Positions 28,244 through 45,874 of a DNA stretch of 64,000 bases are shown here, piece after piece. The notes beneath the pieces are model-generated. The model made no database searches, was not told the origin of the DNA, and worked only from the letters and a program-made list of their open reading frames with translations. The position numbers and the translations under genes were made by a program. Position 1 is the first letter of the stretch, and every line of letters begins with the position of its first letter. This stretch comes from Serratia surfactantfaciens (GTDB lineage: Bacteria; Pseudomonadota; Gammaproteobacteria; Enterobacterales; Enterobacteriaceae), in contig NZ_CP016948.1 in assembly GCF_001642805.2 (NCBI RefSeq), positions 930,001-994,000 on the forward strand, read 5' to 3'.

Positions 28244-29377
28244 ATGGCAAATAAACAGTGGAAACTGATACCGCTCTTGGTATCGATCAGTGTGATCAGC
28301 GGTTGTACAATCGTGCCTGGTTCTCACCTTTCAACTAGTGGGAAAGAGCTTGTAAAACAGCAAGATAGTGATTTCGATATTGACAATCTGGTTAATGTCT
28401 ATCCAATGACGCCTGGTTTGGTTGAGAAAATGAGGCCTAAACCAGTTGTTGCGCAACCAAACTCGTCATTGGAGCGTGAATTGCAAAATTACGAATACCG
28501 GATTGGTATCGGCGACGTGTTAATGGTGACTGTCTGGGATCACCCTGAACTGACTACACCTGCGGGGCAATATCGCAGTGCTAGCGACACGGGTAACTGG
28601 GTGAATTCGGACGGTACAATTTTTTACCCGTATATCGGTAAGATAAAAGTCGCCGGTAAAACGATGAGCCAAGTCAGAAATGAGATCGCAGGACGATTGG
28701 CGCAATACATCGAAAGCCCGCAGGTTGATGTGAGCATCGCCGCTTTCCGTTCTCAAAAAGCGTATGTTACGGGGGAAGTAGCAAAGTCAGGACAGCAACC
28801 GATCACGAACGTTCCCCTCACTGTGATGGATGCAATCAATGCTGCTGGCGGGCTTTCAGAAAATGCAGACTGGCGTAATGTCATTCTGACACATAATGGA
28901 AAGGAACAGCGAATCTCCTTGCAAGCTTTGATGCAAAGGGGGGATTTGACGCAAAATCACCTACTTTATCCGGGCGACATCCTTTACATTCCCCGTAATG
29001 ACGATCTGAAAGTTTTCGTTATGGGGGAAGTGAAAAAACAAACAACGCTGAAAATGGATCGCAGCGGTATGACACTAACGGAAGCATTAGGTAATGCTGA
29101 AGGGATGGATCAGAACTTTGCCGATGCGACGGGGGTGTTTGTTATTAGGCCATTACGTGGTATGGAAGGTAAAAAGCTGGCCAATATCTACCAACTTAAT
29201 GCATCTGATGCTACTGCGATGGTAATGGGGACTGAGTTTCATCTTCAGCCATATGACATCGTATACGTAACTACCGTACCGATTGCTCGTTGGAATCGCG
29301 TTGTCAGCCAATTGCTACCGACTATCGTTGGTTTCAACAACCTGACCGAAGGTACGCAACGTATTCATAATTGGTAG
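28244..29377 (+). CDS. wza: Capsule/EPS outer-membrane export lipoprotein
   Basis: Wza forms the octameric outer-membrane channel through which group 1-type capsule leaves the cell. The 377-residue lipoprotein has a lipobox SVISGC with the lipidated cysteine at residue 21. A polysaccharide export domain follows ([23 protein letters not shown], residues 83-105), then soluble ligand-binding beta-grasp repeats ([33 protein letters not shown]) and a C-terminal amphipathic helix ([19 protein letters not shown]) that lines the pore. It opens the wza-wzb-wzc cassette after a 278-base AT-rich gap from galF. Confidence 0.96.
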
Positions 29378-29389
29378 TTAAGGTAAAAT

Positions 29390-29827
29390 ATGATGTTTGA
29401 TTCTATTCTGGTTGTTTGCGTTGGCAACGTATGCCGTTCTCCTACAGGAGAACGGTTGTTGAAGGAAAAACTGCCCCAAAAGAAAATTGCCTCTGCCGGG
29501 ATTTCTGCTTTGGTGGGTAAGCCTGCTGATGCTCAGGCTGCAGAGGTAGCTAGAAAGCATGATTTGTCATTAGACAATCACCAAGCACAACAACTAACAG
29601 CTGCATTGTGCCGTGAATATGATCTGATATTAGTCATGGAAAAGGGACATGTTGATGCTGTCTGCAGACTAGCCCCCGAAGTCAGAGGCAAAACAATGCT
29701 ATTTGCCCATTGGCTGGGTCAACAAGATATCCCTGATCCTTATCGCAAAAGTTCTGAGGCTTTTGAATTCGTCTATAGCCTACTAGCTGAAGGTGCTCAG
29801 AAGTGGGCGCTAGCATTAAATCGCTAA
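29390..29827 (+). CDS. wzb: Low-molecular-weight protein tyrosine phosphatase
   Basis: Wzb dephosphorylates the tyrosine cluster of Wzc, and this cycling is required for high-level capsule polymerisation. The 145-residue cytoplasmic protein has the catalytic P-loop C10-VGNVC-R16-S near the N-terminus and the general-acid region DPYRKS near residue 116. AAGG lies upstream of the start; an ATG doublet leaves one residue of start ambiguity. It follows wza by 12 bases and precedes wzc by 12 bases. Confidence 0.95.
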   Translation: MMFDSILVVCVGNVCRSPTGERLLKEKLPQKKIASAGISALVGKPADAQAAEVARKHDLSLDNHQAQQLTAALCREYDLILVMEKGHVDAVCRLAPEVRGKTMLFAHWLGQQDIPDPYRKSSEAFEFVYSLLAEGAQKWALALNR

Positions 29828-29839
29828 ACAGAGATTACA

Positions 29840-32014
29840 ATGATTGATAAAAACCGAACGAGTTCCTTGGCAAGTAAGGAAAATGACGAGATCGATTTTG
29901 GACGGCTGTTAGGGACGCTAGTCGATCACAAATGGTTAATTGTTGGTATAACATCATTATTTGCCGTCATTGGCATTATATATAGTCTTTTTGCGACACC
30001 TATATATCAGGCTGATGCAACTGTTCAGGTCGAGCAAAACGAAGGTAACATGCTGGTAAGTAACCTGTCCCAAATGTTGCCTAACTCTTTGCCAGCATCA
30101 TCTACAGAGATTGAACTGATTTCCTCTCGCATGATCGTCGGGAAAACTGTCGAAGATCTCCATTTAGATACTGTTGTCACTCAGAAGTATTTTCCGATTT
30201 TTGGCCGCGGTTGGGCAAGGCTCATGGGCGATAAACCGGGACAGGTTGCCTTATCCAGACTCACTGTAGCTGAGCCTCTAGTCGAGAGTTCTATCGAGCT
30301 GGAAGTTATTGATGATCAAAACTACGTCGTTACCGTAGATAAAGATAAAATCCTTCAAGGTAAAGTTGGCCAATTGGAGAATGCAGGTGGCGTCTCTATG
30401 TTGGTGAGCGAAATCTCAGCGAAGCCAGGAACTGTCTTTAATGTCAAGAAGCTAACAACGCTGGCAGCAACGGTACAACTTCTTGACGATCTTACAGTAG
30501 AAGACAAAGGTAAGGACACGGGTGTTCTTTCACTAACCCTGATGGGTGATGATCCTGTCCTAATCAGAAGAATTATTGAAAGTATCAGCAATAATTACTT
30601 GATCCAAAATGTTGAGCGTAAATCTGAAGAGGCGGCAAAAAGCCTTGCTTTTTTAAAGGAACAATTACCGCAGGTTCGCGATTCTTTAAATATGGCAGAA
30701 GACAAATTAAACAGTTTCCGCCAAGCTAACGATTCTGTTGATCTGTCTTTGGAAGCAAAGTCTGTTCTTGATACTATTGTCGGGGTTGAGGCTCAGCTTA
30801 ATGAGTTGACTTTCAAAGAATCTGAAATTTCGAAATTATACACAAAAGAGCACCCAGCTTATCGTGCATTATTGGAAAAAAGGGCAACCCTACAAAAGGA
30901 AAAAGATAAGTTAAACCAGCGCGTTAGTAAGATGCCGCAAACGCAGCAGGAGATCTTGCGCTTAACTCGTGATGTTGATGCTGGTAAAGAAATTTACATG
31001 CAGTTGCTCAACCGTCAGCAAGAACTTTCGATAACGAAAGCAAGCACTGTGGGTAATGTCAGAATCATTGATACCGCTGTCACTCAACCGAAACCGGTTA
31101 AGCCGAAGAAGACGTTAATCGTTGTCATCTTTACGCTGCTTGGCGGGATCGCTTCCGTTGCCGTAGTATTGCTGAAAAGCGTTCTGCATCGAGGTATTGA
31201 AAGCCCAGAACAGCTGGAAGACCAAGGCATTAACGTTTATGCAAGTATTCCGTTGTCTGAGTGGCAACAGAAAAAAGATATAGAGACGTTGATGCGCGGC
31301 AATAAAAAAACCAACACGCGTTCAAAAACGTTGTTGGCGGTTGGGAACCCTGCGGATTTGGCGATAGAGGCAGTACGAAGCTTAAGAACCAGCTTACATT
31401 TCGCTATGCTTGAAGCTAAAAATAATGTTCTGATGGTTTGTGGTGCAAGCCCAAACATTGGTAAAACCTTCGTTAGCATCAACTTGGCCGCTGTCATTGC
31501 TCAGGCTGGACAACGTGTTTTAGTCATTGATGCTGATATGCGTAAGGGCTATTCACACTCATTGTTGAATACCGATTGGCATAATGGTTTATCTGATATT
31601 TTATCCGCTCAGACCACAATGGCTAACAGTGTCCGCAAAACAGAAATTGAAAACTTAGATTTTATTCCGCGTGGACAGATACCGCCCAATCCTTCAGAGT
31701 TGCTCATGGGGTCACGTTTCAATGAGCTGATTGACTGGGCTAGTAAGAATTATGATATCGTGATGATTGATACACCACCTATTCTAGCAGTTACTGATGC
31801 CGCTATTATAGGGCACAGGGCGGGTACTAGTCTGATGATCGCACGTTTCGCATCCAACACGGTCAAAGAAATAGAGGTGAGTATTCGCCGCTTTAATCAA
31901 AATGGCATAGATGTTAAAGGGGTTATTCTTAATGCTGTTGAGAAGCGGGCTAGCAGCTACTATGGTGATTATGGCTACTATCAATATGAGTATCGTTCAA
32001 ACGATAAAGCATAG
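29840..32014 (+). CDS. wzc: Tyrosine autokinase, capsule polysaccharide co-polymerase
   Basis: Wzc is an inner-membrane BY-kinase that controls polymer length and couples synthesis to Wza. The 724-residue protein has an N-terminal Wzz domain with its first membrane span near residues 32-52, long periplasmic helices, a second span near 425-447, and a cytoplasmic kinase with Walker A GASPNIGKT (535-543) and Walker A' VLVIDAD (560-566). The C-terminal tail from 707 to 718 holds seven tyrosines (YYGDYGYYQYEY), the autophosphorylation cluster. Codon use is more AT-rich than in the core genes upstream. Confidence 0.96.
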   Translation: MIDKNRTSSLASKENDEIDFGRLLGTLVDHKWLIVGITSLFAVIGIIYSLFATPIYQADATVQVEQNEGNMLVSNLSQMLPNSLPASSTEIELISSRMIVGKTVEDLHLDTVVTQKYFPIFGRGWARLMGDKPGQVALSRLTVAEPLVESSIELEVIDDQNYVVTVDKDKILQGKVGQLENAGGVSMLVSEISAKPGTVFNVKKLTTLAATVQLLDDLTVEDKGKDTGVLSLTLMGDDPVLIRRIIESISNNYLIQNVERKSEEAAKSLAFLKEQLPQVRDSLNMAEDKLNSFRQANDSVDLSLEAKSVLDTIVGVEAQLNELTFKESEISKLYTKEHPAYRALLEKRATLQKEKDKLNQRVSKMPQTQQEILRLTRDVDAGKEIYMQLLNRQQELSITKASTVGNVRIIDTAVTQPKPVKPKKTLIVVIFTLLGGIASVAVVLLKSVLHRGIESPEQLEDQGINVYASIPLSEWQQKKDIETLMRGNKKTNTRSKTLLAVGNPADLAIEAVRSLRTSLHFAMLEAKNNVLMVCGASPNIGKTFVSINLAAVIAQAGQRVLVIDADMRKGYSHSLLNTDWHNGLSDILSAQTTMANSVRKTEIENLDFIPRGQIPPNPSELLMGSRFNELIDWASKNYDIVMIDTPPILAVTDAAIIGHRAGTSLMIARFASNTVKEIEVSIRRFNQNGIDVKGVILNAVEKRASSYYGDYGYYQYEYRSNDKA

Positions 32015-32032
32015 TAGTTAGCAACACATCAG

Positions 32033-33353: not shown

Positions 33354-33354
33354 A

Positions 33355-34683
33355 ATGAACACATCAACCTCAAAGATATTTATATTTTTTATTCTGACAT
33401 ACTTGGCACTAGCTTCATTAAATGGGCTAGTTACAATTTTTGCTTATAACACTACTCGTTTGATCTTGCTCTATAAAGATTTCTTCTCGATAGTATTTCC
33501 GCTGTTGATGATTTTCTTTTTTGTTGCAAATGGATATAAGGCAGGTAGGCAGTTCACCACATTGATGCTAACGCTTTTAGCGATTTGCTTTTTTATCTTT
33601 TCATATATTTTGGCTACCTTACTCTTTTCAAAGTTTGATATGGCACGGATTGCTATACAGTTTCGAGTTGAACTCTTCGCAATTTCGGCAATATTGATCG
33701 CAGCGTTAGCTAGTATGTTTAGCACCGAAGAGAAAAAAAACATAGTATCTGTTTTTATCAAGTTTTATATTATTTTTTGTTCGATTAATGCTTTAGCCAC
33801 TATTACTGAGTTCTTCTCGGCAGGTCTTATTTTCCAGGTTCTGGGGTTCAATCCTGGCCCGATGCTAACCGCGTTTGGTAAAGACAATGGCCTTGTTTTA
33901 CGCACTACAGATGGTTATTTAAGAGCTCTGGGCTTATTGACAACACCTTTCAGCCTCAGTGAATATCTTTTCTTTGGGCTAGCTCTTGCCTCATTTGTTT
34001 CAGCCAAGCGAAGAGTGCTATTTACATTCTTAATGATCGCAGGCATTCTTTGCTCTACATCAAAAACAGCTTTCGTGATGATGGTAATTTATGTTCTTTA
34101 TATGATTATTAATAGACTTGTCTCGAATCAGAGATCGTTGAGATTAATTACTTGGATTACTGTTGTTGTTTCTATTGTTTTTTTCCTTTCCGTTACTAAC
34201 ACATTTATATATGAGGTGTTTTCTTCAAAGGAAAACACATACGCCGAAAACAGTATTTTCTTGCGCATTCTTTATATTGAGCAAGTGTTGGATTCTGCCT
34301 ACTCTATTTATTTTGGCTCTGGTTATGCTGTGAACGGCAGTGGCATGGTTGGGGTTGACGATAATACAACGGCGATTCCGCTAGACAGTTTGTATATTTA
34401 CCTTCTCTCAAATTATGGATTTGTTGGTGTACTGGTATTTGTTTTCGGTGCTTTGTTACTGCTGGTGAGTTTATATAAAAAGACATCTAGCGTATTGCCA
34501 CACGGCGTCTATTTGTACTGGTTGATATCATTGCTAACAAACTTTGCCTATAATAATCCATTTACCAACTATCCTGGCTATATATTCCCGATAATAATAA
34601 CTGCGCTTTTAATTTCACTTAAACCGGAAGAATACTCCCATGAGGAGGGCAGTGCTAATCCAGTTTATACAAAAGTGAGTTAA
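33355..34683 (+). CDS. wzy: Wzy-type polysaccharide polymerase
   Basis: A 442-residue integral membrane protein with about 11-12 spans and a larger periplasmic loop near the C-terminal half, typical of Wzy/O-antigen-ligase proteins. Supporting patterns are RTTDGYLRALGLLTTPFSLSEYL, the short polar motif CSTSKTAFVMM inside a span, and GSGYAVNGSGMVGVDDN with DSLYIYLLSNYGFVG. Wzy joins repeat units in the periplasm. It starts one base after the preceding GT stop. It lacks the 12-span MATE-like pattern of a Wzx flippase. Sequence is distinctly AT-rich with rare codons. Confidence 0.8.
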   Translation: MNTSTSKIFIFFILTYLALASLNGLVTIFAYNTTRLILLYKDFFSIVFPLLMIFFFVANGYKAGRQFTTLMLTLLAICFFIFSYILATLLFSKFDMARIAIQFRVELFAISAILIAALASMFSTEEKKNIVSVFIKFYIIFCSINALATITEFFSAGLIFQVLGFNPGPMLTAFGKDNGLVLRTTDGYLRALGLLTTPFSLSEYLFFGLALASFVSAKRRVLFTFLMIAGILCSTSKTAFVMMVIYVLYMIINRLVSNQRSLRLITWITVVVSIVFFLSVTNTFIYEVFSSKENTYAENSIFLRILYIEQVLDSAYSIYFGSGYAVNGSGMVGVDDNTTAIPLDSLYIYLLSNYGFVGVLVFVFGALLLLVSLYKKTSSVLPHGVYLYWLISLLTNFAYNNPFTNYPGYIFPIIITALLISLKPEEYSHEEGSANPVYTKVS

Positions 34684-34688
34684 CTATT

Positions 34689-35750
34689 GTGATCTATGTC
34701 AATGGCCGTTTTTTAACGCAAGATGTGACAGGCGTTCAGCGCTTTGCTATTCAAATATTACTTAATCTGATTAAGATCCGAGATGATATTGTTGTGCTTT
34801 GTCCTAAAACTACGCCAGATAATGAGATTACTAAGGCGTTTAATATAAAGAAAATCGGGTGCTTATCCGGACAGTTATGGGAGCAAACAGAGTTATTTCT
34901 CTTTATGGTGAGAAATGGGAATGTGCTTTTGAGTTTTTGTAATACCGCTCCAATAGGATTCTTTAACAATATCATTGTTCACCATGATATAACTTATCGA
35001 GTTTATCCCAAAAGTTACTCACCAGGTTTTAGATTTTTCTATAGAATTTTTTCACCGTGGCTTTTAAAAAGGGGAAAAAAAATCATTACAGTCAGTGATT
35101 TTTCTCGAAGTGAAATAGAGCGGGCCTACGGAATTGAGAATGTTGATGTTGTCAATAATGCAGCTACTGAGGTTTTTTTTCCACGCAAAAGTACTGATTC
35201 AGACAATCCATATATTCTATGTGTATCTTCTCCAAGTGTTCATAAGAATTTTAAACTGATAATTGATAGTTTTGAAAAAATAAATAAGAGTTTAGGTTTG
35301 GAGTTGAAAATTGTCGGTGCATCGAATAGAAATTTTTCAACAGTTACCTATTCTACAATTAGTAATAGTTCATATATAAAGTACTGTGGTCGAGTTACTG
35401 ATGAGGAACTGGCAGTGCTTTATTCAGGAGCCTTTGCTTTCGTTTTCCCATCCCTTTATGAAGGCTTCGGAATTCCATTGCTTGAGGCTCAATCTTGCGG
35501 TTGTCCTGTTATTGCATCTAATACAGCATCAATGCCGGAAGTATTGAACGACAGTGCGCTGTATTTTTCACCAACTTGTTCAGAGAGTTTAATTTCACAG
35601 ATAGAGAAACTATACCATGATGATGGCTTAAGGAATTCACTGATTAAACGAGGTTTTGAAAACGCTAAGCGATTTAATTGGTTAGATTCGGCTAATAAAA
35701 TAAATAATATACTTGAAGGCTATGCAAAAGATAAGCCCTGGAGTGATTAG
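34689..35750 (+). CDS. Glycosyltransferase, GT4 family
   Basis: A 353-residue GT-B enzyme starting at GTG (MIYVNGRFLTQDVTGVQRFA). The N-terminal pattern VTGVQRFAxxxL is common in mannosyl- and related transferases of polysaccharide loci. The donor domain shows YILCVSSPSVHKNFKLIIDSF and the E-x7-E motif in YEGFGIPLLEAQSCGCPVIAS. Its stop TAG shares its last base with the GTG of the next gene. Since manC/manB further along supply GDP-mannose, a mannosyltransferase role is possible but not shown. Confidence 0.87.
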   Translation: MIYVNGRFLTQDVTGVQRFAIQILLNLIKIRDDIVVLCPKTTPDNEITKAFNIKKIGCLSGQLWEQTELFLFMVRNGNVLLSFCNTAPIGFFNNIIVHHDITYRVYPKSYSPGFRFFYRIFSPWLLKRGKKIITVSDFSRSEIERAYGIENVDVVNNAATEVFFPRKSTDSDNPYILCVSSPSVHKNFKLIIDSFEKINKSLGLELKIVGASNRNFSTVTYSTISNSSYIKYCGRVTDEELAVLYSGAFAFVFPSLYEGFGIPLLEAQSCGCPVIASNTASMPEVLNDSALYFSPTCSESLISQIEKLYHDDGLRNSLIKRGFENAKRFNWLDSANKINNILEGYAKDKPWSD

Positions 35751-36835
35751 TGAAAATATTGCATGTCGCTGAAACAATAAAGGGTGGTGTTGCGACAATC
35801 ATGCGACAACTGGTTATGGAACAGCAAGATACTGAAGATGAGGTATTATGCATTGTTCCGAGACAACAGTTATCTGAACTGGTTGGTGTTAGAGAACATG
35901 TGCTTTCTCCATTCAATAGAACTGGAAGAAATACCATGTCATTATTTTTGCTTCTGTTTAGTTTTCTGCGAGTGGTTTTAAATAAAAAACCGGATGTAAT
36001 TCATTTACACAGTAGTTTTGCTGGCTTTTTATGCCGTTTGGCTTTGCCTATAATATTTGTTTTCTATCATCCCAAAGTGATTTACTGTCCGCATGCGTTT
36101 GCTTTCTTAATGGATATTCCTGTTTATAAAAAGCGATTCTACGCATTTATTGAGCGCATGCTAGAGAAAGTGACGGATAAAACTATTTGTGTCAGTGAGT
36201 ATGAATATAGGGAAGCCATAAAATGGGGACTTAATCCAGAGTGTTTAGTCACCATTTATAATGGTGTCCAAGACCCTTTGATAGTAACGCAAAAAAGCCC
36301 TTATAAGTACGCGAATAAGAAGAATATTCTCTTTGTTGGACGCACGGATCATCAGAAAGGCTTTGATCACGTTCTAAATATAACTAATTTACTTTCTCAG
36401 AATGAGGATATACATATCACTGTGATCGGAGACTATGTTATAGAGTATAAAAGTCTTCCTGTATATGGTGAAAAAATAACGTATATAGGTTGGTTGAAGT
36501 ATGAAGATATTGCACCTTATTTTTTCCATGCAACAGTCTTACTGATGCCAAGTCGTTGGGAAGCCTTCGGCCTTGTTGCCGTTGAGGCGCAAAGTTACGG
36601 TTTACCCGTTCTGGCTTTTGAACGAGGTTCACTGCCAGAAATTATTATAAATGGTGTGACAGGTTTTTTAGTTGACTATGGGGATATAAAAGGTTTTTCT
36701 ACCGTTATTTGTGAACGAGATTTGGGTTTTTGGAAAACGATGAGTGAAAGAAGCTATGATAATTACAGAAAAAATTTCAGGAGTTGTTTTATGACCCAAA
36801 AAGTAAGTGCGCTTTATCGTGAAGTTACAAATTAA
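35750..36835 (+). CDS. Glycosyltransferase, GT4 family
   Basis: A 361-residue GT-B glycosyltransferase starting at a GTG that overlaps the upstream stop (TAGTG). It opens MKILHVAETIKGGVATIMRQL and carries DVIHLHSSFAGFLCRL, NILFVGRTDHQKGFDHVL and the E-x7-E motif in WEAFGLVAVEAQSYGLPVLAFERG. It has one hydrophobic stretch (LALPIIFVFY) in the acceptor domain, compatible with membrane association. It is part of the capsule biosynthetic block; sugar specificity unknown. Confidence 0.87.
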   Translation: MKILHVAETIKGGVATIMRQLVMEQQDTEDEVLCIVPRQQLSELVGVREHVLSPFNRTGRNTMSLFLLLFSFLRVVLNKKPDVIHLHSSFAGFLCRLALPIIFVFYHPKVIYCPHAFAFLMDIPVYKKRFYAFIERMLEKVTDKTICVSEYEYREAIKWGLNPECLVTIYNGVQDPLIVTQKSPYKYANKKNILFVGRTDHQKGFDHVLNITNLLSQNEDIHITVIGDYVIEYKSLPVYGEKITYIGWLKYEDIAPYFFHATVLLMPSRWEAFGLVAVEAQSYGLPVLAFERGSLPEIIINGVTGFLVDYGDIKGFSTVICERDLGFWKTMSERSYDNYRKNFRSCFMTQKVSALYREVTN

Positions 36836-36930
36836 ATATCTGGCCTATCTGAGTTTATTTGACTTGACGTTCGGCGGTTACTTATCTCTATAGCGTGTTA
36901 AATTTTATAAAATAGTATTCGGGATGCATA

Positions 36931-38364
36931 ATGAAAAAAACAAATGTTTTTTTTGGCGATTTTACAACAAAGATAATGTTAGCGCTTTCAGATATTTTCT
37001 TTTTCAATATATCGGTATATCTTTCATACTTCATTATTTATAAAATATTTAATGGATTAGATAATTATATTCCTCAGGATGAGTTTTTTATTCGTTCTGT
37101 TGCCCAGTTTGTTATATCTGTGGTGTGTGTTCTCTGGTTCTGGACTAGGCTTAGACACTACACATATAGAAAGCCATTCTGGTTTGAACTCAAGGAAGTC
37201 ATCAGAACGTTAGTCATTTTTGCTGTTCTTGATTTGGCTCTCGTGGCATTTTCAAAGTGGAATTTTTCTCGTTCGGTTTGGTTGTCATCTTGGCTGCTGA
37301 TTATTATTTTAGTACCATTGGGGAGGGCATTCACAAAAAGAATCCTTAACAAGATGAATTTGTGGAAAAAGCAAACCATTATTATTGGTTCAGGAAAGAA
37401 TGCGTTTGAAGCTTATGCTGCATTACAAAGTGAAGAGGTTCTTGGATTTGAAGTTGTTGCTTTTGTATGCACGGATAAACCATGTGAAGATAACTATTTT
37501 GGTATCCCAGTTATTAACTCAGAAAAAGAACTTTGGCCGAGAGTCAATGCCGAGAGCACGCAGTTCATCGTCGCACTTGAATTTGAACAGCATGCGTTAC
37601 GTGATTGGTGGTTGAAAGATCTGGCTAAGCATAATTGTCGGTCGGTTTCTGTTATCCCAACTCTTCGTGGTGTTCCTCTTTATGGCACCGATATGTCATT
37701 TATTTTTAGTCATGAAGTAATGATTCTGCGGGTAAGCAATAATTTAGCCAAGCGTTCATCACGCTTCATTAAGCGCACATTTGATATTATTGGCTCATCT
37801 CTTATTTTGGTTGCACTTTCTCCTGTGCTGATTTTCTTGACTTACAAAGTTTCAAGAGATGGTGGTCGCCCTATTTATGGGCATGAGAGAGTGGGGCACA
37901 ATGGAAAGAAATTTAAATGCTTAAAGTTCAGATCGATGGTTCTAAATTCTCAGGAAGTACTTGCAGATTTATTGGAGCGAGATCCTGAGGCCAGAGAAGA
38001 ATGGAATAAAGACTTTAAATTGAAAAACGACCCACGTATTACAAAGATTGGCGCTTTTATTAGAAAGACAAGCCTGGATGAGTTACCTCAATTGTGGAAT
38101 GTGCTTCGTGGTGAAATGAGTCTAGTTGGCCCAAGACCGGTTATTGAAAAAGAATTGGAACGTTATGCAGGTGATGTCGATTACTACTTCATGGCGAAGC
38201 CAGGAATGACAGGGTTGTGGCAGGTCAGTGGCCGTAATGATATTGATTATGACACGCGCGTGTATTTTGATGCATGGTACGTTAAGAATTGGGCGCTTTG
38301 GAATGACATTGCGATTCTATTTAAAACTATAGGTGTTGTATTAAAGCGTGATGGCGCATACTAA
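36931..38364 (+). CDS. wbaP: Undecaprenyl-phosphate galactose phosphotransferase
   Basis: WbaP starts repeat-unit synthesis by transferring galactose-1-phosphate from UDP-galactose to undecaprenyl phosphate. At 477 residues it has the three-part family layout: four N-terminal membrane spans (to about residue 135), a central nucleotide-binding-like domain (TIIIGSGKNAFEAYAALQS), and the C-terminal catalytic domain with KFRSMVLNSQEVL, ASIRKTSLDELPQLWN-like TSLDELPQLWNVLRGEMSLVGPRP and KPGMTGLWQVSGRND. Full length, the extension ERDPEAREEWNKDFKLKNDPR and overall pattern favour galactose over glucose. It implies the capsule repeat begins with galactose. A 95-base gap precedes it. Confidence 0.92.
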   Translation: MKKTNVFFGDFTTKIMLALSDIFFFNISVYLSYFIIYKIFNGLDNYIPQDEFFIRSVAQFVISVVCVLWFWTRLRHYTYRKPFWFELKEVIRTLVIFAVLDLALVAFSKWNFSRSVWLSSWLLIIILVPLGRAFTKRILNKMNLWKKQTIIIGSGKNAFEAYAALQSEEVLGFEVVAFVCTDKPCEDNYFGIPVINSEKELWPRVNAESTQFIVALEFEQHALRDWWLKDLAKHNCRSVSVIPTLRGVPLYGTDMSFIFSHEVMILRVSNNLAKRSSRFIKRTFDIIGSSLILVALSPVLIFLTYKVSRDGGRPIYGHERVGHNGKKFKCLKFRSMVLNSQEVLADLLERDPEAREEWNKDFKLKNDPRITKIGAFIRKTSLDELPQLWNVLRGEMSLVGPRPVIEKELERYAGDVDYYFMAKPGMTGLWQVSGRNDIDYDTRVYFDAWYVKNWALWNDIAILFKTIGVVLKRDGAY

Positions 38365-38396
38365 CTTTATAATAGTTTATTTTATGGGAATGGATA

Positions 38397-39527
38397 ATGA
38401 GAATCGCACTCGATAGCCGATTTATGCAAAAGGTTAGTCAAGGGACTGGAACGTACACAATAGAATTGGCGAATAACTTGATTTCGTGCATAAATCGCGA
38501 TGATAAGTTATTGCTTCTGGCGGACGATCCTGCCTTAGTTTTAACTAAGCAGGCTGGGCAACCTTTCTTAAATGATAATCGTGTAGAAATAAAGAAATTG
38601 ATATCAGGTTGGACGCCTATGAACCTTCTCGGCGGATTTGCACTTGCTGAATGGCGTAATAAATGCGATCTCTTGCATACAAATTATTTATCGCCCTTGG
38701 TTACAACCAGGAGTACGAAACATGTTGTGACTGTTCATGATGTCATGTTCCGTACGCACAAACAGTACTTCAATCCTAAGTTGACTAAAGGATTGGAAAT
38801 TTTCACGCCGCCTAGTTTACAAAAAGCAGATCATATAATTGCAGTTTCTCATTATACGAAAGATGAGATAATCAAGAACTTCGGTGTTAATGAAAATAAA
38901 ATTACGGTTGTGCACGAAGCTGCGAGCAAGCAGTTTCACGTGAAAGATAAAGTAAAATCTAATGATGTAATCGCTAGTCTGGGTGTGACTAAGCCATATT
39001 TTCTTTTTGTCGGACGGTTTGCCGCGATTAAGAATATTGATAGTGTTATTGCTGCATTCGAGAGACTTGCCGATGCTGATGTGCAGTTAGTTTTGGTTGG
39101 AGGGTTCGATCCGGCATTTCCTAATCCTGCCTTGGAAAATAAAATATTTAATAACCCGGATAAAATAAAAGTCCTTCGAGGTGTATCGAATGAAGACCTT
39201 GTTCATTTGTATAACAACACGCTTTGCCTGGTATTTCCAAGTTTTGCTGAGGGATTTGGTTTGCCTATTCTAGAAGCGATGTCTTGCGGTGCTCCTGTCA
39301 TCACCTCTACTGCAGGTTCCTGTCCGGAAATAGCTGGCGATGCAGCATTATTGGTTAATCCAAATGACCTATCTCAGTTAGTTAGTGCCATGGAGAATGT
39401 TTTTAATGATGATCAGTTACGTGCTTCTTTGTCAGGAAAAGGTTTAAAAAGAGCTGATACTTTCAGTTGGCAGCGATGCGCAACGGAGACTTACTCTGTT
39501 TATGAAAATATCATAGGAAAATTTTGA
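38397..39527 (+). CDS. Glycosyltransferase, GT4 family
   Basis: A 376-residue GT-B enzyme opening [24 protein letters not shown]. Further motifs are [24 protein letters not shown] [35 protein letters not shown] and the E-x7-E in [28 protein letters not shown]. It is the fourth GT4 of the capsule block and starts 32 bases after wbaP. The next gene, the phosphoribosyltransferase, starts one base after its stop, so the two are likely co-translated. Donor unknown; the opening resembles mannosyltransferases, which is only suggestive. Confidence 0.87.
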
Positions 39528-39528
39528 T

Positions 39529-40113
39529 ATGAAAGTTATTACGGCTATCGGCAGCGATTTTAATTCGTTATGTGATCGGTTGTCTAAAGAGATAATTAAA
39601 GAATTTTCCCCTGATGTTATTATTGGTGTTGCCACTGGTGGACGCTATGTCGCTGAAGAAATTGGGAAAAAAATTAATGCTCCACTTGTTATAATAAAAA
39701 GGCAGCGAAATTCTACAAAAAAGAAGTCTAAGTTCAGAATAGCTTCTTTTTTGCCTTTCCTCCCAAGGTCGATAAATGACTTGTTGAGAATAGCGGAAAT
39801 AAAATTCAACGAACGTAAGTTCAGAAGATCCGGAAGAATATTGTCAGTAGGGGCTGTGGCACATATCTCCGGCGACTTGGAACACCTACGAAAAGGTAAG
39901 AGAATTCTAATTATTGATGATGCCGTTGATAGTGGTGGTACGTTTATTGATTGCATCAATTTTCTTCAACCCTTTCTTTCATCGGATTCGGTCGTTAAAA
40001 CTGCTGCGTTAAATGTCACATTTGACGAACCTGCTTTTATTCCAGATTTTTATCTTTACAAGGGCTATCTTATCCGTTATCCCTGGGCTAGTGATGTTAG
40101 GAGAAAAGGTTGA
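39529..40113 (+). CDS. Phosphoribosyltransferase in the capsule operon (candidate glycan phosphoribosyl transferase)
   Basis: A 194-residue protein with a type I phosphoribosyltransferase core: a PPi loop ATGGR at 35-39 and the PRPP-binding motif ILIIDDAVDSGGT at 127-139 with adjacent acidic residues Asp130/Asp131. Between them, where purine and pyrimidine salvage enzymes keep the base-binding hood, residues 57-103 form a basic and hydrophobic segment (KKKSKF, FLPFLPRSINDLLRIAEI, ERKFRRSGR) that could contact membrane or lipid-linked glycan. Its TGA overlaps the TTG start of a HAD phosphatase. Salvage enzymes are not expected inside a capsule operon, so I infer transfer of 5-phosphoribosyl from PRPP onto the growing repeat unit. 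A plain nucleotide salvage role is the alternative. Confidence 0.75.
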   Translation: MKVITAIGSDFNSLCDRLSKEIIKEFSPDVIIGVATGGRYVAEEIGKKINAPLVIIKRQRNSTKKKSKFRIASFLPFLPRSINDLLRIAEIKFNERKFRRSGRILSVGAVAHISGDLEHLRKGKRILIIDDAVDSGGTFIDCINFLQPFLSSDSVVKTAALNVTFDEPAFIPDFYLYKGYLIRYPWASDVRRKG

Positions 40114-40712
40114 AATCCGTATATGATCTTGATGGTACACTTGTGCCATTCAACACTTTTAAGGTATGGGTTGTTCTGTCTTTTGTTATCTCTATTTTTT
40201 TCCTTAGATGGTATTTTTTATTTTCTATTATTAAATTCGCTATATGCAGGAAAATTGGGAGAATGGATCGCATTGGATTTAAGGTGGCTTTATTAGCGAT
40301 TCAGCAACGCACCAAGTTTTGGCCCTATGTCGGTAAGAAGTACGGAAAATGGCTGGCGCGTCATTCTCTTCGACAGGATTTGCTCGTTCTGGGTGATAAT
40401 TCGACTAAGTGCTTGGCAACTGCAGCGCCGGATATTTATGTATCCTCTTTCTCCCAGGAAGTTAATGATTTTGATGTCACTATATGTGCACATTTTTCCC
40501 ACTCAGGTGAATTTGTCGAAACATTAAATGTAGTGAAGCTTCAATTCGTTCGGGAGCAATTTTCTGAGGAACCAGATCTTTTCTTTACTGATCATTATGA
40601 TGATATCCCGTTAGCTATGGCTGCTAAGTTTACCTATATTGTTTCACCATCAATAAAGTCCGAGAGATTATTTTGCGACCTGCTCAATGCAGGGCGTTAT
40701 ACGGTAGTATAA
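40110..40712 (+). CDS. HAD-superfamily phosphatase coupled to the phosphoribosyltransferase
   Basis: A 200-residue HAD-IB-like protein. Motif I is at the very N-terminus (Asp6 and Asp8 in YDLDGTLV), motif II is likely Ser112/Ser113 in IYVSSF, motif III Lys143, and motif IV is DHYDDIP at 161-167. The cap contains a long hydrophobic stretch (about 18-46) that probably inserts in the membrane. The start is TTG at 40110, overlapping the upstream stop (TTGA), with AGGAG six bases before it; any later start would lose the catalytic motif. Inferred role: removal of the 5'-phosphate from a phosphoribosylated lipid-linked glycan, leaving ribofuranose. It is the last gene of the capsule operon. Confidence 0.75.
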   Translation: MKSVYDLDGTLVPFNTFKVWVVLSFVISIFFLRWYFLFSIIKFAICRKIGRMDRIGFKVALLAIQQRTKFWPYVGKKYGKWLARHSLRQDLLVLGDNSTKCLATAAPDIYVSSFSQEVNDFDVTICAHFSHSGEFVETLNVVKLQFVREQFSEEPDLFFTDHYDDIPLAMAAKFTYIVSPSIKSERLFCDLLNAGRYTVV

Positions 40713-40733
40713 CGGTACTATTTTAAAAATGAT

Positions 40734-40768
40734 AAAAGCGAGACTGTGTTTATCGTCTCGCTTTTTTT
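40734..40768 (+). terminator. Terminator of the capsule operon
   Basis: AAAAGCGAGAC (40734-40744) and GTCTCGCTTTT (40755-40765) form an 11-bp stem followed by a continued T run. It is 21 bases past the HAD stop and marks the operon end. Confidence 0.92.
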
Positions 40769-40775
40769 CGGTTTT

Positions 40776-40800
40776 AAACCACCTCCAAAGGAGATGGTTT
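40776..40800 (-). terminator. Terminator of the glycoside hydrolase gene
   Basis: On the minus strand AAACCATCTCC and GGAGGTGGTTT form an 11-bp stem with one G-U pair and a TTT loop, followed by AAAAC. It lies 34 bases past the stop of the minus-strand gene. Termination strength is uncertain because the T run is short. Confidence 0.6.
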
Positions 40801-40833
40801 TTCATTTGGTTTATATAAAGATAGAATGCAGAT

Positions 40834-42135
40834 TTACTCGTTGCCGAATGTTATCACTGGCGTGTCTGCACTAACCGCTGGTTGATTTTTTTCCGTTGGA
40901 TCTTCAATCACGAGAGCCGTAATTTTCTGCGATGATGGTTTACTATCCGTCATGATCGACATTATTCTTCCCGTTGTGGAATTACTTCCTTCCTGCATAT
41001 CACTCTTTTTCCAACTAACCTTGGCTTCTCTTTTTCCATTGCTGAAGGTTAAATTCACCTTACCATCGGTTGTCATATTGTAATTTTTTACCGAGTAATT
41101 TTTTATTAAATCGGCAATTTTTTCGTATGACTCCATGCCTGGTTTTTTACTTCCATTTTTCCTGAGCAATCCAAATCTATGCTCTATATTTTGGTTGTTA
41201 TCACCATCATCGCTTAAATCATACCACCAAACTCCTTTTATATATCCCCTGGCTTTTGCAAGAAGAGTATATTTGACAACATATTGGGCTACATAGTCCT
41301 CGCTGTACCCAAATTTCCCCGCATTGGTTGGTACGCCAATTTCAGTGATGTAAATAGGAACCTCTTTGCCTACGAGCCTCTTCAATTCTTCTTGATACCC
41401 ATCAATTTTTTCAATGTTTCCTTCCGGGGTAGTCAACGATTTATCACTGGATTTAAAGCTATACGGATGTATTGATATCCCATCTATATAATTGAGCATG
41501 CCCAGCTTTATCAAGTCATCGGACCATTTTAATCCATCGTTTCCTAAAGGATCGAAGGAGCCGGCAAGCACGATAGCTCCAGGGTCTGCCCTCTTTATCG
41601 CTATAGAGGCCTGCTTGATGAGTTTGTAGTAGACCTGAGCAGGAGGAGGGGCTGGTGATTTATTATGCGTGCCGGTGCCAACACTCCACTCATTCCAGAT
41701 CTCATAATACTTGACCTTTCCTTTAAATCTTTTTGCTGTCCAGTATGCATAATTTGCATAAGCTGCGATAGATTCATCGTTGCTGGCATATCCACTTTTA
41801 TCATAGAGATCATTGCCATAGGCGAGAACGGCAATGGGGTTCATACCATAGTTTTTATTTGCAACTAAGAGAGACTTATCTACACGTATAAGTTTATCTA
41901 CTGGTTGATAGGTGCCTTTCTGCTGTTCAACTAGCCCCCAAAGGTAATCATCACGAAAGGAATTAAAACCATAGTTACTTATCAAGTTCAAATAATGATC
42001 TTGCTCTTCTGGATACCAGCGCAGGTGTGTGTTAATGCCAATCTCGAAGGCATAACCGATTTTCAGAGGCAGGGTGGCAAGAAGTGTGCCGAGTATAAAT
42101 TTGAGAGAGAAGGGAGGGGGTTTTATGAACGTCAT
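40834..42135 (-). CDS. Secreted glycoside hydrolase, clan A TIM barrel (GH39/PslG-like)
   Basis: A 433-residue exported protein: the signal peptide has FILGTLLATLPL as hydrophobic core and cleavage near Tyr28-Ala29. The TIM barrel shows the clan GH-A pair: acid/base Glu149 in YEIWNEW and candidate nucleophile Glu265 in IYITEIGVP, with ISIHPYSFKS and GVWWYDLSDDG between and after. After about residue 345 a beta-rich tail follows. PslG of Pseudomonas, a biofilm-polysaccharide hydrolase, has this kind of architecture. Convergent placement against the capsule operon suggests it cuts or trims that polymer; the GH family number is uncertain. AT-rich like the capsule genes. Confidence 0.78.
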   Translation of the reverse strand: MTFIKPPPFSLKFILGTLLATLPLKIGYAFEIGINTHLRWYPEEQDHYLNLISNYGFNSFRDDYLWGLVEQQKGTYQPVDKLIRVDKSLLVANKNYGMNPIAVLAYGNDLYDKSGYASNDESIAAYANYAYWTAKRFKGKVKYYEIWNEWSVGTGTHNKSPAPPPAQVYYKLIKQASIAIKRADPGAIVLAGSFDPLGNDGLKWSDDLIKLGMLNYIDGISIHPYSFKSSDKSLTTPEGNIEKIDGYQEELKRLVGKEVPIYITEIGVPTNAGKFGYSEDYVAQYVVKYTLLAKARGYIKGVWWYDLSDDGDNNQNIEHRFGLLRKNGSKKPGMESYEKIADLIKNYSVKNYNMTTDGKVNLTFSNGKREAKVSWKKSDMQEGSNSTTGRIMSIMTDSKPSSQKITALVIEDPTEKNQPAVSADTPVITFGNE

Positions 42136-42494
42136 CGTCTTATCTCGCTGAGGTCAGAGTGAAAATAATAGATTGGTTTTACAGGTATTTTTACGCTTTC
42201 AAACGTGAAAGTAACTAAGGTTATTCCTAATGTTAGCTAAGCAATCACTCGTTAACTAAATGCAGGAAAGATTAGTATCAATCTGCGTCATTAGGATTAT
42301 TTTTATATTTCCTTTCTAATCTTGACATCATTGAATTTAGATACTTTCTTTGTATGTATCTACTGCTTTAACTATAGGAGTATTGAAACTGACGAATCAT
42401 TGATTTTCATGCATTTTTGCTTGTTCTTGCTTTGTTCTTCAGCGGCAAATTGCTGTCTGTAACGTTTTTGAATGGCTTCTCTAGGAGAATACAC
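42136..42494. promoter_or_regulatory. Divergent AT-rich region between the hydrolase and slaA
   Basis: A 359-base, AT-rich stretch that must carry the promoters of the minus-strand hydrolase and of slaA. No operator or repeat was recognised. The open reading frame extending upstream of slaA within it is not supported by a ribosome-binding site. Confidence 0.55.
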
Positions 42495-45494
42495 ATGTCA
42501 TCTCTTGTCTCACAGCAGACTGGTGCTGCGCTTTACTATGCTGTTCTTGGTAAAGCAGCATCCGCGGCGACGTTCGATAGTGCCGGGCAACTTCTTGAAA
42601 ATGGTGGAACTTCAGCGCAATATGTCGCTCAGATTATCTCTTCCAGTGCAGGTCAGGCGTTATATAGCGGGAAGAGTACTAGCGATATTGTGAGTGCGAT
42701 ATATACCAACGTTTATGGCTCAGCACCTAGCGCCGGTGTTTTAGCTGCTTTGCTTGCTGGAGGACAGCCCGCGGCAAATATCGTTGGTGGTTTGGTCAGT
42801 GATCTCTTAAATTACAATGGCTTTGATTCAACCATACTTTCTCAACAAACTGCATTTGATAATAAAATCGATGCCGTATTGTATCCTTCGGCGAATACTG
42901 CAGCCGCGGCCGGTAATGGCGCTTCTGATGTATTAGCGATCTACTATGTTCTTGGGTCCGTGCAATCAGCTGCAGGTGTCAACTATTGGGGGGCGGCAAT
43001 TAATGATGGTTCCAGAACATTCTCCGTCGCCGCTCAGAGTTTTGTTAATGAGCGCAGTTATATTAACACTTTGAGTAATCAGGATTTTATTACCAAGCTC
43101 TTTACTCAAGGTTTTAAACGGCCGCCAGATAGCACCGAGTTAAATACCTACTTGACGGAACTGCAAGGCGGAGCAACGCGTGGTGATGTTATTGTTGATT
43201 TCATCAACTCGTTGCGTGGCAGTGTCAGCAGCTCTGATGCCGCAGCTAAACAGGCGTTTACACTGGCAACAACTGCTTACACTGCTGGTAGTTTACCTGG
43301 CTTGAATTACCAGGAACAGGCTGCTGCAGTGTTCCTGGCCGTGCCGGAGCGCGGCATTGACGCCGTGGGTTTGGATAGCTGGAGCAAGTATCTGGCATCT
43401 GGCGCGGCATATACTACGTTTATTACCAGTGCATTAGCTTCTGATGAATTCCAGCGGAAAGGCGCACAGCTGACTGGTGATAACTTTATCCAACATGTTT
43501 ACACCGCAGTTCACGGTACTGCAGCTACGGCGGCTCAGCTGGCGCTTTACAGTACTTTGGGGACTGATAAATCGGTTATTACCCAAGCCATCATTAATGA
43601 CCTGCGGACTTCAACGGCTACTGACACGGTCACTGTCACTCAGCAGCATGCATTTGAGTTTGATATCGGTACCAGCCTGTTGTACAAAACCGCTGCTAGC
43701 CTGACGACTACAGCCGCCGGCGGTAACGCTACGGGTACTGTGAACACAGGTATTTCTCATCAAATCAGCAACGCCGAAACCGCAGTACTAACGAATGTTC
43801 AACTGAACGCCAACGCCGCCAGCCTGGTCAACCTGAAGTTCGCCGATCACCTGGCTAACCTGACCATCAACGGCACCAGTGCAGCAACGGTGAACCTGTC
43901 TGATAACGGCGTCAACCCTGGCGTGGCGGTGACTGTCAACAACGGCAACGTCATTCTGAACGCCAGCTCCGGTTCAGACAATGTGGTCGTGACTTCGACG
44001 GCTAATATCGCGACCGGTACCGCACAGTTTAACCTCGGCGCCGGCAACGACAGCCTGCACTGGGCAGGTAACGCGGTCTCCGGCGGTGCGAACACCGTTG
44101 CCAATACCGTCAAGGCTGACGGCGGTACCGGCACGGATTCCATCTCTGCCAACTTCATCACCAAAACCGTAGTAACCAACCAGAACGCCCTGGGCGTTCG
44201 CACCAGCACGGTGACCAGCAACGCCAACAACTTCTCGAACTTCGAGCAGATTGATCTGACCGGCTACATCGGTAAGTCTGTCGGTACGCTGATTACGACA
44301 CCGCTGATTGGTTCGTCGACTATCACTACCGTCACTACGCCAACCAACACCTTCGACTTCGGCCTGACCAACGGCACGTCCACGGTGGAAGGCACTACCG
44401 GCGGTACGGTCACCCAAAACGCGGCGGCGACCAACCTGGGGGCGCAAGGTTTCGTGATTTCCGGGCTGGCTAACGTCAACGTCATCAACGCCGCCGGCGG
44501 TAACGCCGCGCAGCTGGAAGTGAAAGGGGACGCGACCTCCGCCAGTACGCTGAACTTCACCTTCGTGCAGAACGCCACCGATCACTTCAACATCAACTTC
44601 GATGCGGTGAGTTCGGCCAACGTGAATGCCGGCGCCATCAGCCTGAACAGCACCAGCAGCGCCCTGCTGGGCACTGCGCTGACAACGGTGAACGTGGCTT
44701 CCGGCGGTACAGGTTCGTTTAACAACATTCTGTCTCTGGCCGGTACCAATGCGCAGGTTCAGACTGTTAATGTGACTGGCGATCATGCGTTGAATCTGAC
44801 GCTGGGCAGCGGTTTCAGTAACGTGCGTGATGTTAACGCTTCGACCAATACCGGCGGTTTGAACCTGGATTCAAGCCATGCGGGTACTGGTGACGGTATC
44901 ATCGTGCAGCTGTTGAACGCCTTGCCATTGAGCGCGGTTACCACCGCGTTGCTGACCCCGTTGTTGAACACCTTGGGCCTGAACGGTTATCAACTGACGG
45001 TTGAAGGGACGTCGACAGCCGACAGCTTCAACGTACTGGGCAACACCACGTTGACCGGCGGTGCCGGGGCGAATATCTACGATCTGAAATCCAGTAACAC
45101 GCAGGCGGGGGTCACCATCACCGACTTTAGCACCGCGAAGGACAAGATCGTTGATGCTGCTTCCGGGCTGACCCTGTCCAATACCGGTACTGCGGTGGCG
45201 GATTACGGTACTCGCGCTTCAGATACGTTGGATGCACTGTTGGGCTCGTTGGTTGGCGGTCTGACCACCGGCGTTGTCGGCCTGTTGGGCGGCATCCTGG
45301 GCCTGAGCAATCCAAACTCGCTGACGGCGAAGGTGGGCGTGGCTTCGGTGGTGTTCAGCGGTACCGGTAACAATGCTGACTCCTATGTGATTATTGATAA
45401 CAACAATAACCACACGCTGGATGCCAACGACACGGTTATTTACCTGACTGGCCAGAACCACCAGCAATTGGTGGATACTCTGCACTACGCCTAA
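42495..45494 (+). CDS. slaA: S-layer protein secreted by the Lip type I exporter
   Basis: SlaA forms the surface layer of S. marcescens and is exported by LipBCD without a cleaved signal peptide. The 999-residue protein is rich in Ala, Thr, Ser, Asn and Gly and nearly free of Cys. The N-terminal 400 residues contain DUF4214-like repeats (for example FITKLFTQGFKRPPDSTELNTYL, FIQHVYTAVHGTAATAAQLALY); the rest is beta-rich with degenerate glycine-rich, RTX-like pieces (LGAGNDSLHW, LTGGAGANIYDL). The C-terminus, ending QLVDTLHYA, should hold the secretion signal. The ATG at 42495 has AGGAG upstream. Base composition becomes visibly more GC-rich after about 43,780. Confidence 0.92.
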   Translation: MSSLVSQQTGAALYYAVLGKAASAATFDSAGQLLENGGTSAQYVAQIISSSAGQALYSGKSTSDIVSAIYTNVYGSAPSAGVLAALLAGGQPAANIVGGLVSDLLNYNGFDSTILSQQTAFDNKIDAVLYPSANTAAAAGNGASDVLAIYYVLGSVQSAAGVNYWGAAINDGSRTFSVAAQSFVNERSYINTLSNQDFITKLFTQGFKRPPDSTELNTYLTELQGGATRGDVIVDFINSLRGSVSSSDAAAKQAFTLATTAYTAGSLPGLNYQEQAAAVFLAVPERGIDAVGLDSWSKYLASGAAYTTFITSALASDEFQRKGAQLTGDNFIQHVYTAVHGTAATAAQLALYSTLGTDKSVITQAIINDLRTSTATDTVTVTQQHAFEFDIGTSLLYKTAASLTTTAAGGNATGTVNTGISHQISNAETAVLTNVQLNANAASLVNLKFADHLANLTINGTSAATVNLSDNGVNPGVAVTVNNGNVILNASSGSDNVVVTSTANIATGTAQFNLGAGNDSLHWAGNAVSGGANTVANTVKADGGTGTDSISANFITKTVVTNQNALGVRTSTVTSNANNFSNFEQIDLTGYIGKSVGTLITTPLIGSSTITTVTTPTNTFDFGLTNGTSTVEGTTGGTVTQNAAATNLGAQGFVISGLANVNVINAAGGNAAQLEVKGDATSASTLNFTFVQNATDHFNINFDAVSSANVNAGAISLNSTSSALLGTALTTVNVASGGTGSFNNILSLAGTNAQVQTVNVTGDHALNLTLGSGFSNVRDVNASTNTGGLNLDSSHAGTGDGIIVQLLNALPLSAVTTALLTPLLNTLGLNGYQLTVEGTSTADSFNVLGNTTLTGGAGANIYDLKSSNTQAGVTITDFSTAKDKIVDAASGLTLSNTGTAVADYGTRASDTLDALLGSLVGGLTTGVVGLLGGILGLSNPNSLTAKVGVASVVFSGTGNNADSYVIIDNNNNHTLDANDTVIYLTGQNHQQLVDTLHYA

Positions 45495-45874
45495 GGGTAA
45501 AGTTGCAATAACCAATAATTCCCCATGGGACTATTGGGGATTAAATAATGCGGGGGCGTAACCCCCCGCATGTTTAATTTTGTGAGCGGCATCATCCTCT
45601 CTAAGTTATTCCATTTCGTTATCTTCCTCTCTTATTTTTGATCTCCTGTATCTCATTGTTTTGTCATGGTTTATTTCATCTTTTTGACCGTCTTTTTTTT
45701 TATGGCCAACCTTGCCGATTTTCACTTTCTCAACCTATAGTTAACGAAAGTATCTGCAGTCTCGGGCATTTTTTTGGGGTGAGTCTTCCCGGGGTAAATT
45801 CTTTTTTAGGAATTTCTTTAGGGGAGGGGTCAATGCGGATTGGACTGACAGTGCACATGATGTAAGGGCAGAAC
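45495..45874 (+). other. slaA-lipB intergenic region
   Basis: A 380-base gap. The first 80 bases hold the slaA terminator; the remainder is AT-rich and probably carries the lipB promoter. A 75-codon open frame (45638-45865) ends 9 bases before lipB, but its composition is not protein-like and it has no recognisable family. Confidence 0.6.
45548..45581 (+). terminator. Terminator of slaA
   Basis: ATGCGGGGG (45548-45556) and CCCCCGCAT (45563-45571) form a 9-bp stem with a 6-base loop, followed by GTTTAATTTT. A smaller hairpin (CCCCA / TGGGG) precedes it. Confidence 0.8.

What the first reader, a model, noticed from the sequence alone, without database searches (positions are those of the whole stretch)
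39529..40712. Overlapping PRTase + HAD phosphatase pair: a candidate split ribofuranosylation module in the capsule operon
Seen: the second-last capsule gene has a PPi loop (ATGGR) and PRPP motif (ILIIDDAVDSGGT). The last gene is a HAD phosphatase with motifs I and IV intact (YDLDGTLV, DHYDDIP), joined by a TTGA overlap. Known: in Klebsiella O-antigens dual-domain enzymes make ribofuranose in two steps, a glycan phosphoribosyltransferase using PRPP and then a phosphoribosyl phosphatase of the HAD family. Inference: here the same logic is split over two genes and uses a classical PRTase-type core with a basic/hydrophobic hood (residues 57-103) and a HAD protein with a membrane-inserted cap. It predicts ribofuranose in this capsule.
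Basis: partly seen in the sequence, partly recalled or inferred. Interest (0 to 1): 0.88.

Follow-up and report, generated by a model that had tools for sequence, protein, structure and literature searches.

The report
A two-gene ribose-adding capsule module
Two overlapping genes at the end of a bacterial capsule operon look like a two-step machine that attaches ribose to the growing sugar chain using a relative of a nucleotide-recycling enzyme, and the same pair turns up in sugar-coat gene clusters of distant bacteria.

Summary
At 39529-40113 lies an intact type I phosphoribosyltransferase (PRTase; PF00156), at 40110-40712 an intact HAD-IB-like phosphatase (PF12710). They overlap by TTGA and end a capsule gene run with a WbaP-type initiator, GT4 genes and a Wzy-like gene. 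Relatives make the reading much stronger. Of 66 loci with this PRTase family, 60 have a phosphatase within two genes: the same HAD family in 39, an unrelated PHP protein in 16, another HAD type in 5. Of 99 genomes of one Bacteroidota family, 26 carry the PRTase and 25 of these the HAD directly downstream; none of the other 73 has a HAD hit of that strength. One relative fuses the two. The predicted PRTase fold is XGPRT-like, but two purine-contact positions are not kept. Best explanation: PRPP-dependent transfer of ribose-5-phosphate to a capsule-repeat sugar, then removal of the 5'-phosphate, giving (probably beta-) ribofuranose. It works like the published gPRT+PRP ribofuranosyltransferases, but the transferase is a different, compact family, so it is not a member of theirs. 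No assay or sugar analysis exists; 12 of 39 HAD loci have no recognised glycosyltransferase nearby.

The parts
39529..40113 (+). Type I phosphoribosyltransferase (194 aa), proposed PRPP:glycan phosphoribosyltransferase
   Evidence: PF00156; D130, D131, V133, D134, G136 in 52 of 52 rows; AF2 model pLDDT 94.5, XGPRT-like fold
39697..39837 (+). Codons 57-103: basic hood with family-conserved R60, K66, P79, R87, E90
39904..39942 (+). Codons 126-138: PRPP-binding motif ILIIDDAVDSGGT
40110..40712 (+). HAD-IB-like phosphatase (200 aa, TTG start), proposed phosphoribosyl-glycan 5'-phosphatase
   Evidence: PF12710; four motifs intact; AF2 model pLDDT 97.0, HAD-IB fold
40110..40113 (+). TTGA stop/start overlap of the two genes
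40734..40768 (+). Terminator-like hairpin with T tract after the last gene (11-bp stem, 10-nt loop)
   Evidence: -15.5 kcal/mol, z -4.23; not picked up, whose loop limit is 8
38397..39527 (+). GT4 glycosyltransferase directly upstream (one base between it and the PRTase)
36931..38364 (+). WbaP-type initiating sugar-1-phosphate transferase of the same gene run
   Evidence: TIGR03022 559.5 bits
32220..36835 (+). Rest of the repeat-unit genes: GT4 (32220), Wzy-like (33355), GT4 (34689), GT4 (35750)
   Evidence: Wzy_C is just under its cut-off
28244..32014 (+). Wza-like (28244), Wzb-like (29390), Wzc-like (29840) export and control genes
   Evidence: read from the translations; names recalled, no family search run on these three

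Best explanation
The pair is a split, two-step ribofuranosylation module of the capsule repeat unit. Step 1: the PRTase binds Mg-PRPP with its classical PPi loop and PRPP motif; the conserved D134 acts as general base on a sugar hydroxyl of the lipid-linked (WbaP-started) intermediate that the basic hood holds at the membrane; ribose-5-phosphate is transferred with inversion, giving a beta-linked Ribf-5-P. Step 2: the HAD phosphatase removes the 5'-phosphate through an aspartyl-phosphate (D6), so that the chain can be extended or flipped. Shown here: genes, motifs, predicted folds, gene order, conserved pairing, a different phosphatase type beside relatives. Inferred: donor, acceptor, anomer, roles of D134 and hood, sugar in the polymer.
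For: Position and overlap. Pair kept in a different capsule locus of the genus and in an alphaproteobacterial polysaccharide locus. 66 loci: HAD 39, PHP 16, second HAD type 5, none of these 6 within two genes; where my ORF calling saw both, the HAD is next downstream in 36, next upstream in 1, one gene further in 1. 99 genomes of one Bacteroidota family: 25 of 26 PRTase genomes have the HAD, all 25 directly downstream; 0 of 73 others at that score (137 bits or more; next best 69) (Fisher p 1.4e-22, not corrected for kinship). PRTase-HAD in one 483-aa frame; PRTase-GT2 fusions L053, L056, L059 (Pfam on L053). Neighbours include WbaP, GT2, GT4 and Wzy, Wzx. Fold XGPRT-like, but the purine-contact Lys position is K in 6 of 52 and the Trp position W in 0 of 52. 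14 of 38 HAD rows (not the window's own) match the HAD part of UbiA-fused NF006088, an architecture like that of the proven ORF15 enzyme (PMC11127046, passages).
Against: No assay, no sugar analysis. 12 of 39 HAD loci have no GT recognised within 5 kb (9 of the 12 Bacteroidota), several lying among housekeeping genes by eye, so not every pair serves a capsule. 6 of 66 loci lack a recognised partner (two of these contigs end within 740 bases after the PRTase), and none of five distant gammaproteobacterial relatives matched my phosphatase profiles, though one has a HAD-like neighbour by eye. G438 has the PRTase without the HAD beside it. Closest solved PRTases use purines. No solved gPRT or PRP was listed by sequence. 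The window's own HAD does not match NF006088.
Confidence: 0.72

Rival explanations
1. The PRTase puts ribose-5-phosphate on undecaprenyl phosphate and the HAD makes undP-Ribf, a donor used after flipping by a periplasmic GT-C enzyme, as in the three-component systems.
For: 14 of 38 HAD rows resemble the HAD part of UbiA fusions; hydrophobic cap in the Serratia-type members; one relative lies beside a polyprenyl-phosphate-mannose-synthase-like GT2 (likeness judged by eye).
Against: The PRTase is of the soluble type, not UbiA. No GT-C or flippase family among the nine window ORFs scanned, nor, apart from Wzx-type Polysacc_synt and MatE, among the 25 commonest Pfam families of 85 of 112 unnamed operon neighbours of HAD and PHP loci (104 families in all, the rest not shown).
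Confidence: 0.1
2. A nucleotide-type pathway: the PRTase ribosylates a base or base-like compound and the HAD acts as a 5'-nucleotidase, giving a nucleoside or nucleoside-like decoration.
Against: Purine-contact Lys and Trp positions not kept; repeated location close to WbaP-type genes and fusion to GT2.
Confidence: 0.1
3. PRTase-fold regulator or PRPP sensor of capsule synthesis (like PyrR or PurR), with the phosphatase acting on an unrelated capsule intermediate.
For: PyrR and PurR are among weaker matches.
Against: No further domain in 194 aa; PRPP motif and hood conserved; the HAD is tied to the PRTase across genomes; fusion.
Confidence: 0.05

Closest known systems
Dual-domain PRPP-dependent ribofuranosyltransferases, gPRT + PRP (Klebsiella O4/O7; CriT/CrpP of Hib Bcs3; Cj1432; KrkA)
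   Same: Two-step logic: Ribf-5-P from PRPP to a glycan, then a HAD phosphatase removes the 5'-phosphate (PMC10299916, PMC11231755, PMC12096443, PMC12887879, passages read). The CriT catalytic core is itself described as PRTase-like (PMC10299916), so a very distant common origin is not excluded.
   Different: There the transferase is a large domain (CriT about 445 aa with three helical bundles; Cj1432C about 340 aa) fused to the HAD; here 194 aa, type I PRTase (PF00156), separate gene, XGPRT-like. CrpP keeps only the first Asp of motif I; here both are kept in 38 of 38 rows. Kelly 2022 itself was not readable here.
Three-component pentofuranose systems: UbiA-type PPPRS with PRP (C. youngae ORF15; mycobacterial Rv3806c)
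   Same: PRPP donor and, in ORF15, a HAD phosphoribosyl phosphatase; part of the HAD family weakly matches the HAD part of UbiA fusions
   Different: Integral membrane UbiA transferase and lipid acceptor there; soluble-type PRTase here and no GT-C seen
XGPRT/HGXPRT purine phosphoribosyltransferases (PF00156)
   Same: Fold and PRPP motif
   Different: Hood insert, purine-contact positions not kept, phosphatase partner, capsule locus
HAD-IB phosphatases (TIGR01490, SerB-like, 3fvv)
   Same: Fold and four motifs
   Different: TDHxDDxPL form of motif IV, tied to a PRTase; the window's HAD reaches only 19 bits against TIGR01490 (cut-off 98.3)

Membership tests
Dual-domain gPRT+PRP ribofuranosyltransferase | Transferase domain of about 340-445 aa (CriT with three helical bundles) | tested here: not met
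   194-aa type I PRTase, AF2 model with one hood insert and no bundles
Dual-domain gPRT+PRP ribofuranosyltransferase | HAD-family phosphatase partner | tested here: met
   PF12710, motifs intact
Dual-domain gPRT+PRP ribofuranosyltransferase | Transferase and phosphatase on one polypeptide | tested here: not met
   Two genes in the window; one relative has both in one frame
Dual-domain gPRT+PRP ribofuranosyltransferase | Sequence kinship of the HAD to known PRP domains | tested here: inconclusive
   No solved PRP listed (not checked that such entries are in the copy); 14 of 38 rows, not the window's, match the HAD part of NF006088 far below its cut-off
Dual-domain gPRT+PRP ribofuranosyltransferase | PRPP donor, glycan acceptor, Ribf product | not testable with these tools
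   -
Type I phosphoribosyltransferase (PF00156) | Fold, PPi loop and PRPP motif | tested here: met
6-oxopurine PRTase | Lys and Trp contacting the purine (roles recalled, E. coli XGPRT K115/W134) | tested here: not met
   Window F165 and L181; K in 6 of 52 at 165, W in 0 of 52 at 181. Lys column from the alignments to 1vdm and 4trb (in 4z1o it falls one column earlier, 164, where K is 0 of 52); Trp column from 1vdm and 4z1o
Three-component pentofuranose system | UbiA-type membrane PRTase | tested here: not met
Three-component pentofuranose system | GT-C and flippase genes beside it | tested here: not met
   No such Pfam family in nine ORFs from 32220 to 42135
HAD-IB phosphatase | Motifs I-IV and helical cap after motif I | tested here: met

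The most novel reading that the evidence does not exclude
[quoted passage not shown] a third transferase family for the ribofuranose problem beside the gPRT and UbiA types.
Probability: 0.62. Interest if true: 0.82.

Novelty: new variant of a known kind. Interest (0 to 1): 0.74.

Why it matters
If true, ribofuranose, a sugar of several capsule and O antigens, is made in many bacteria by an enzyme family that sequence libraries match only weakly and only as purine or generic phosphoribosyltransferase, and its presence becomes predictable from sequence. It would show the nucleotide-salvage PRTase fold turned to O-glycosylation with interchangeable phosphatases, and offers small, separable enzymes for glycan synthesis.

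Tried and rejected
Purine salvage: lowered by the non-conserved purine-contact positions and by the glycan context. UbiA-like lipid route: lowered by soluble fold and no GT-C seen. Defence PRTase: only weak PADLOC matches (18.5 bits and below). Ribose genes of pneumococcal serogroup 24 (rbsF; 24A lacks it and lacks ribofuranose and ribitol, PMC12534171, passages): could not be compared, no sequence held. Mobile DNA: no phage match, one plasmid match, none for the HAD in plasmids, no E. coli DNA match. Foldseek/VIA lists show no CriT-like chain among the 50 rows printed; this excludes nothing. A random-window control of GT density could not be made. A co-occurrence test in the order of L042 gave only 1 of 191 genomes, too few to use. 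The PHP test in the family of L070 looked better than it is: of the 3 strong hits in 397 genomes, two are loci already in hand (L101 = L070, L102 = L056), so one is new. Literature: searches in an open-access library showed, in the listings seen, no paper on this PRTase family; Kelly 2022 is not held.

Rows dropped: alignment A3 holds the window, G025 and 50 of the 64 loci (left out: L028 with an in-frame stop, L053/L056/L059 fusions, L071 short, and L048, L052, L054, L057, L058, L065, L066, L068, L070 not entered). A4 holds the window and 37 of 39 HAD loci (left out: L007, near-copy of the window, and L029). A6 holds 85 of 112 unnamed operon neighbours. In one search the 66 loci are the 64 plus L006 and L007.

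Full report
What is there. The window lies at 930001-994000 of a 5.1-Mb single-contig genome; gene content suggests Serratia (S-layer-like repeat protein with a type I secretion set at 42417-50406; names recalled, not tested). A same-strand run of capsule genes goes from 28244 to 40712: Wza-, Wzb- and Wzc-like genes (by eye), four GT4 genes, a Wzy-like gene, a WbaP-type initiator (TIGR03022, 559.5 bits), then the PRTase and the HAD. One base lies between the last GT4 and the PRTase; the HAD starts at TTG inside the PRTase stop. A hairpin with a T tract at 40734-40768 folds at -15.5 kcal/mol, z -4.23, none of 200 shuffles as good; the consensus scan did not list it and listed another site, no more than shuffles give.

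The pair in the genus. Of 60 genomes searched, own genome included, 3 carry the PRTase: the window's, G004 (96% identical, same locus) and G025 (53%). G025 has an unrelated capsule locus (rml genes, GT2s, a Wzy_C protein, a Wzx-like gene; mostly named by eye) with the same PRTase-HAD pair. Among 30 genomes of the genus 3 have it, again own included, so it is a locus-variable gene. A plasmid of a Hyphomicrobiales strain carries the pair at about 30% identity between a Wzy-like and a pyruvyltransferase-like gene (by eye).

Survey. A scan of the 84,980-species collection with patterns from three PRTases gave 64 loci, by record title in Bacteroidota, Pseudomonadota, Bacillota, Verrucomicrobiota and Spirochaetota. 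With L006 and L007 (the last a near-copy of the window) this makes 66. Within two genes of the PRTase: the HAD family in 39, a PHP protein in 16, a second HAD type in 5, none of these in 6; in two of the six the contig ends within 740 bases after the PRTase. PF02811 was checked on three PHP proteins; the HxHT, H, E, PHP and DxHT motifs are kept in 16 of 16. A recognised GT2 or GT4 lies within 5 kb in 27 of 39 HAD loci, 15 of 16 PHP loci, 4 of 5 of the second HAD type and 1 of 6 without a partner; WbaP-type genes in 3, 11, 5 and 2 (own profiles, limited sensitivity). Of the 12 HAD loci without GT, 9 are Bacteroidota, some among housekeeping genes by eye: against a purely capsular role. Of 85 unnamed operon neighbours scanned with Pfam (of 112), 7 match Wzy_C, 3 EpsG, 3 O-ag_pol_Wzy, 5 Polysacc_synt, 7 GHL10 (25 of 104 families shown).

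Co-occurrence. In 99 genomes of the family of Duncaniella muris (L045), 26 have the PRTase at E 1e-10 or better. HAD hits split cleanly: 25 at 137 bits or more, all in PRTase genomes and all directly downstream (-6 to 121 bases between match ends); 12 at 69 bits or less, none adjacent. Fisher p 1.4e-22, without correction for kinship; at least two of the 99 (G426, G429) gave rows to the profiles. The exception, G438, has its PRTase before a GT2. In 397 genomes of the family of L070 only 3 have a strong PHP hit (320 bits or more), all beside the PRTase; two of these were already in hand, so only one is new; the 16 weaker hits (76 bits or less) have no PRTase within about 1.5 kb. Ten genomes whose PRTase lacks an adjacent PHP have no strong PHP anywhere (best 32 bits). 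Distances of PRTase and HAD correlate over 35 pairs (r 0.62; highest of 2000 permutations 0.24), which shared descent also gives. The PRTase tree of 52 rows splits 14 Bacillota rows (PHP 10, second HAD type 3, none 1) from 38 others (HAD 36, none 2) with full support.

Fusions. L097 reads PRTase and HAD in one open frame of 483 aa, whose N-terminal part is probably not translated. L053, L056 and L059 join the PRTase to a GT2 (L053 checked with Pfam). A distant gammaproteobacterial group (five loci, L087-L091) sits beside polysaccharide genes, GT4 by profile in three (L088-L090), Wzy-, Wzx- or Wzc-like by eye in L087, L088 and L091; none matched my phosphatase profiles, L088 has a HAD-like neighbour by eye.

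Mechanism and likelihood. The simplest account of a PRPP-binding transferase that is nearly always found with a phosphatase, of more than one type, that often sits near a sugar-phosphate initiator and can be fused to a GT2, is transfer of ribose-5-phosphate to a glycan followed by dephosphorylation. Type I PRTases invert PRPP (established knowledge, recalled), hence beta-Ribf. I put 0.72 on this. Donor, acceptor, anomer and the presence of ribofuranose remain inferred.

Against the known. Published Ribf enzymes use a large transferase domain fused to a HAD PRP (passages of PMC10299916, PMC11231755, PMC12096443, PMC12887879) or a UbiA-type PPPRS with a PRP (passages of PMC11127046). The present transferase belongs to neither by size, domain make-up and family match, though the CriT core is described as PRTase-like (PMC10299916), so distant common origin is open. 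It works like the first but is not a member. CrpP retains only the first motif I Asp (PMC10299916), the present HADs both. 14 of 38 HAD rows match the HAD part of UbiA-fused NF006088, none near its cut-off and the window's own not at all: a hint of kinship with the PRP of ORF15, not a proof. Ten searches of an open-access library showed no description of this family in the listings seen; subscription papers, Kelly 2022 first, were not readable.

Noticed in passing
window 28244-40712: No Wzx flippase gene was recognised inside the capsule gene run; PF01943 finds four elsewhere in the genome and none in the window. Other flippase families were not searched genome-wide.
   Followed up: partly
L042, L031, L070 and 13 further loci: A conserved ~241-aa PHP-domain protein beside capsule PRTases in Bacillota, motifs kept in 16 of 16.
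   Followed up: yes
L054, L060, L061, L063, L066: A second HAD type (SFDIFDTLVKR...SDMYLD) stands beside a PRTase subfamily ending TATSRxS.
   Followed up: partly
L053, L056, L059: PRTase fused to a GT2 glycosyltransferase.
   Followed up: partly
L012, L033, L048, L052 and others: Bacteroidales keep a GHL10-GT2-PRTase-HAD row outside large capsule loci, pointing to a ribosylated glycan of unknown kind.
   Followed up: no
L098 4013-4771: Polyprenyl-phosphate-mannose-synthase-like GT2 (by eye) directly after a PRTase that has no HAD beside it.
   Followed up: no
L028 10001-10588: PRTase reading frame with one in-frame stop beside an open HAD frame.
   Followed up: no
window 40834-42135 (-): GH5-like glycanase (PF00150) convergent with the gene run, perhaps a capsule-trimming enzyme.
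   Followed up: no
L087-L091: Distant gammaproteobacterial PRTase group (HYPWS ending) beside polysaccharide genes, without a match to my phosphatase profiles.
   Followed up: partly
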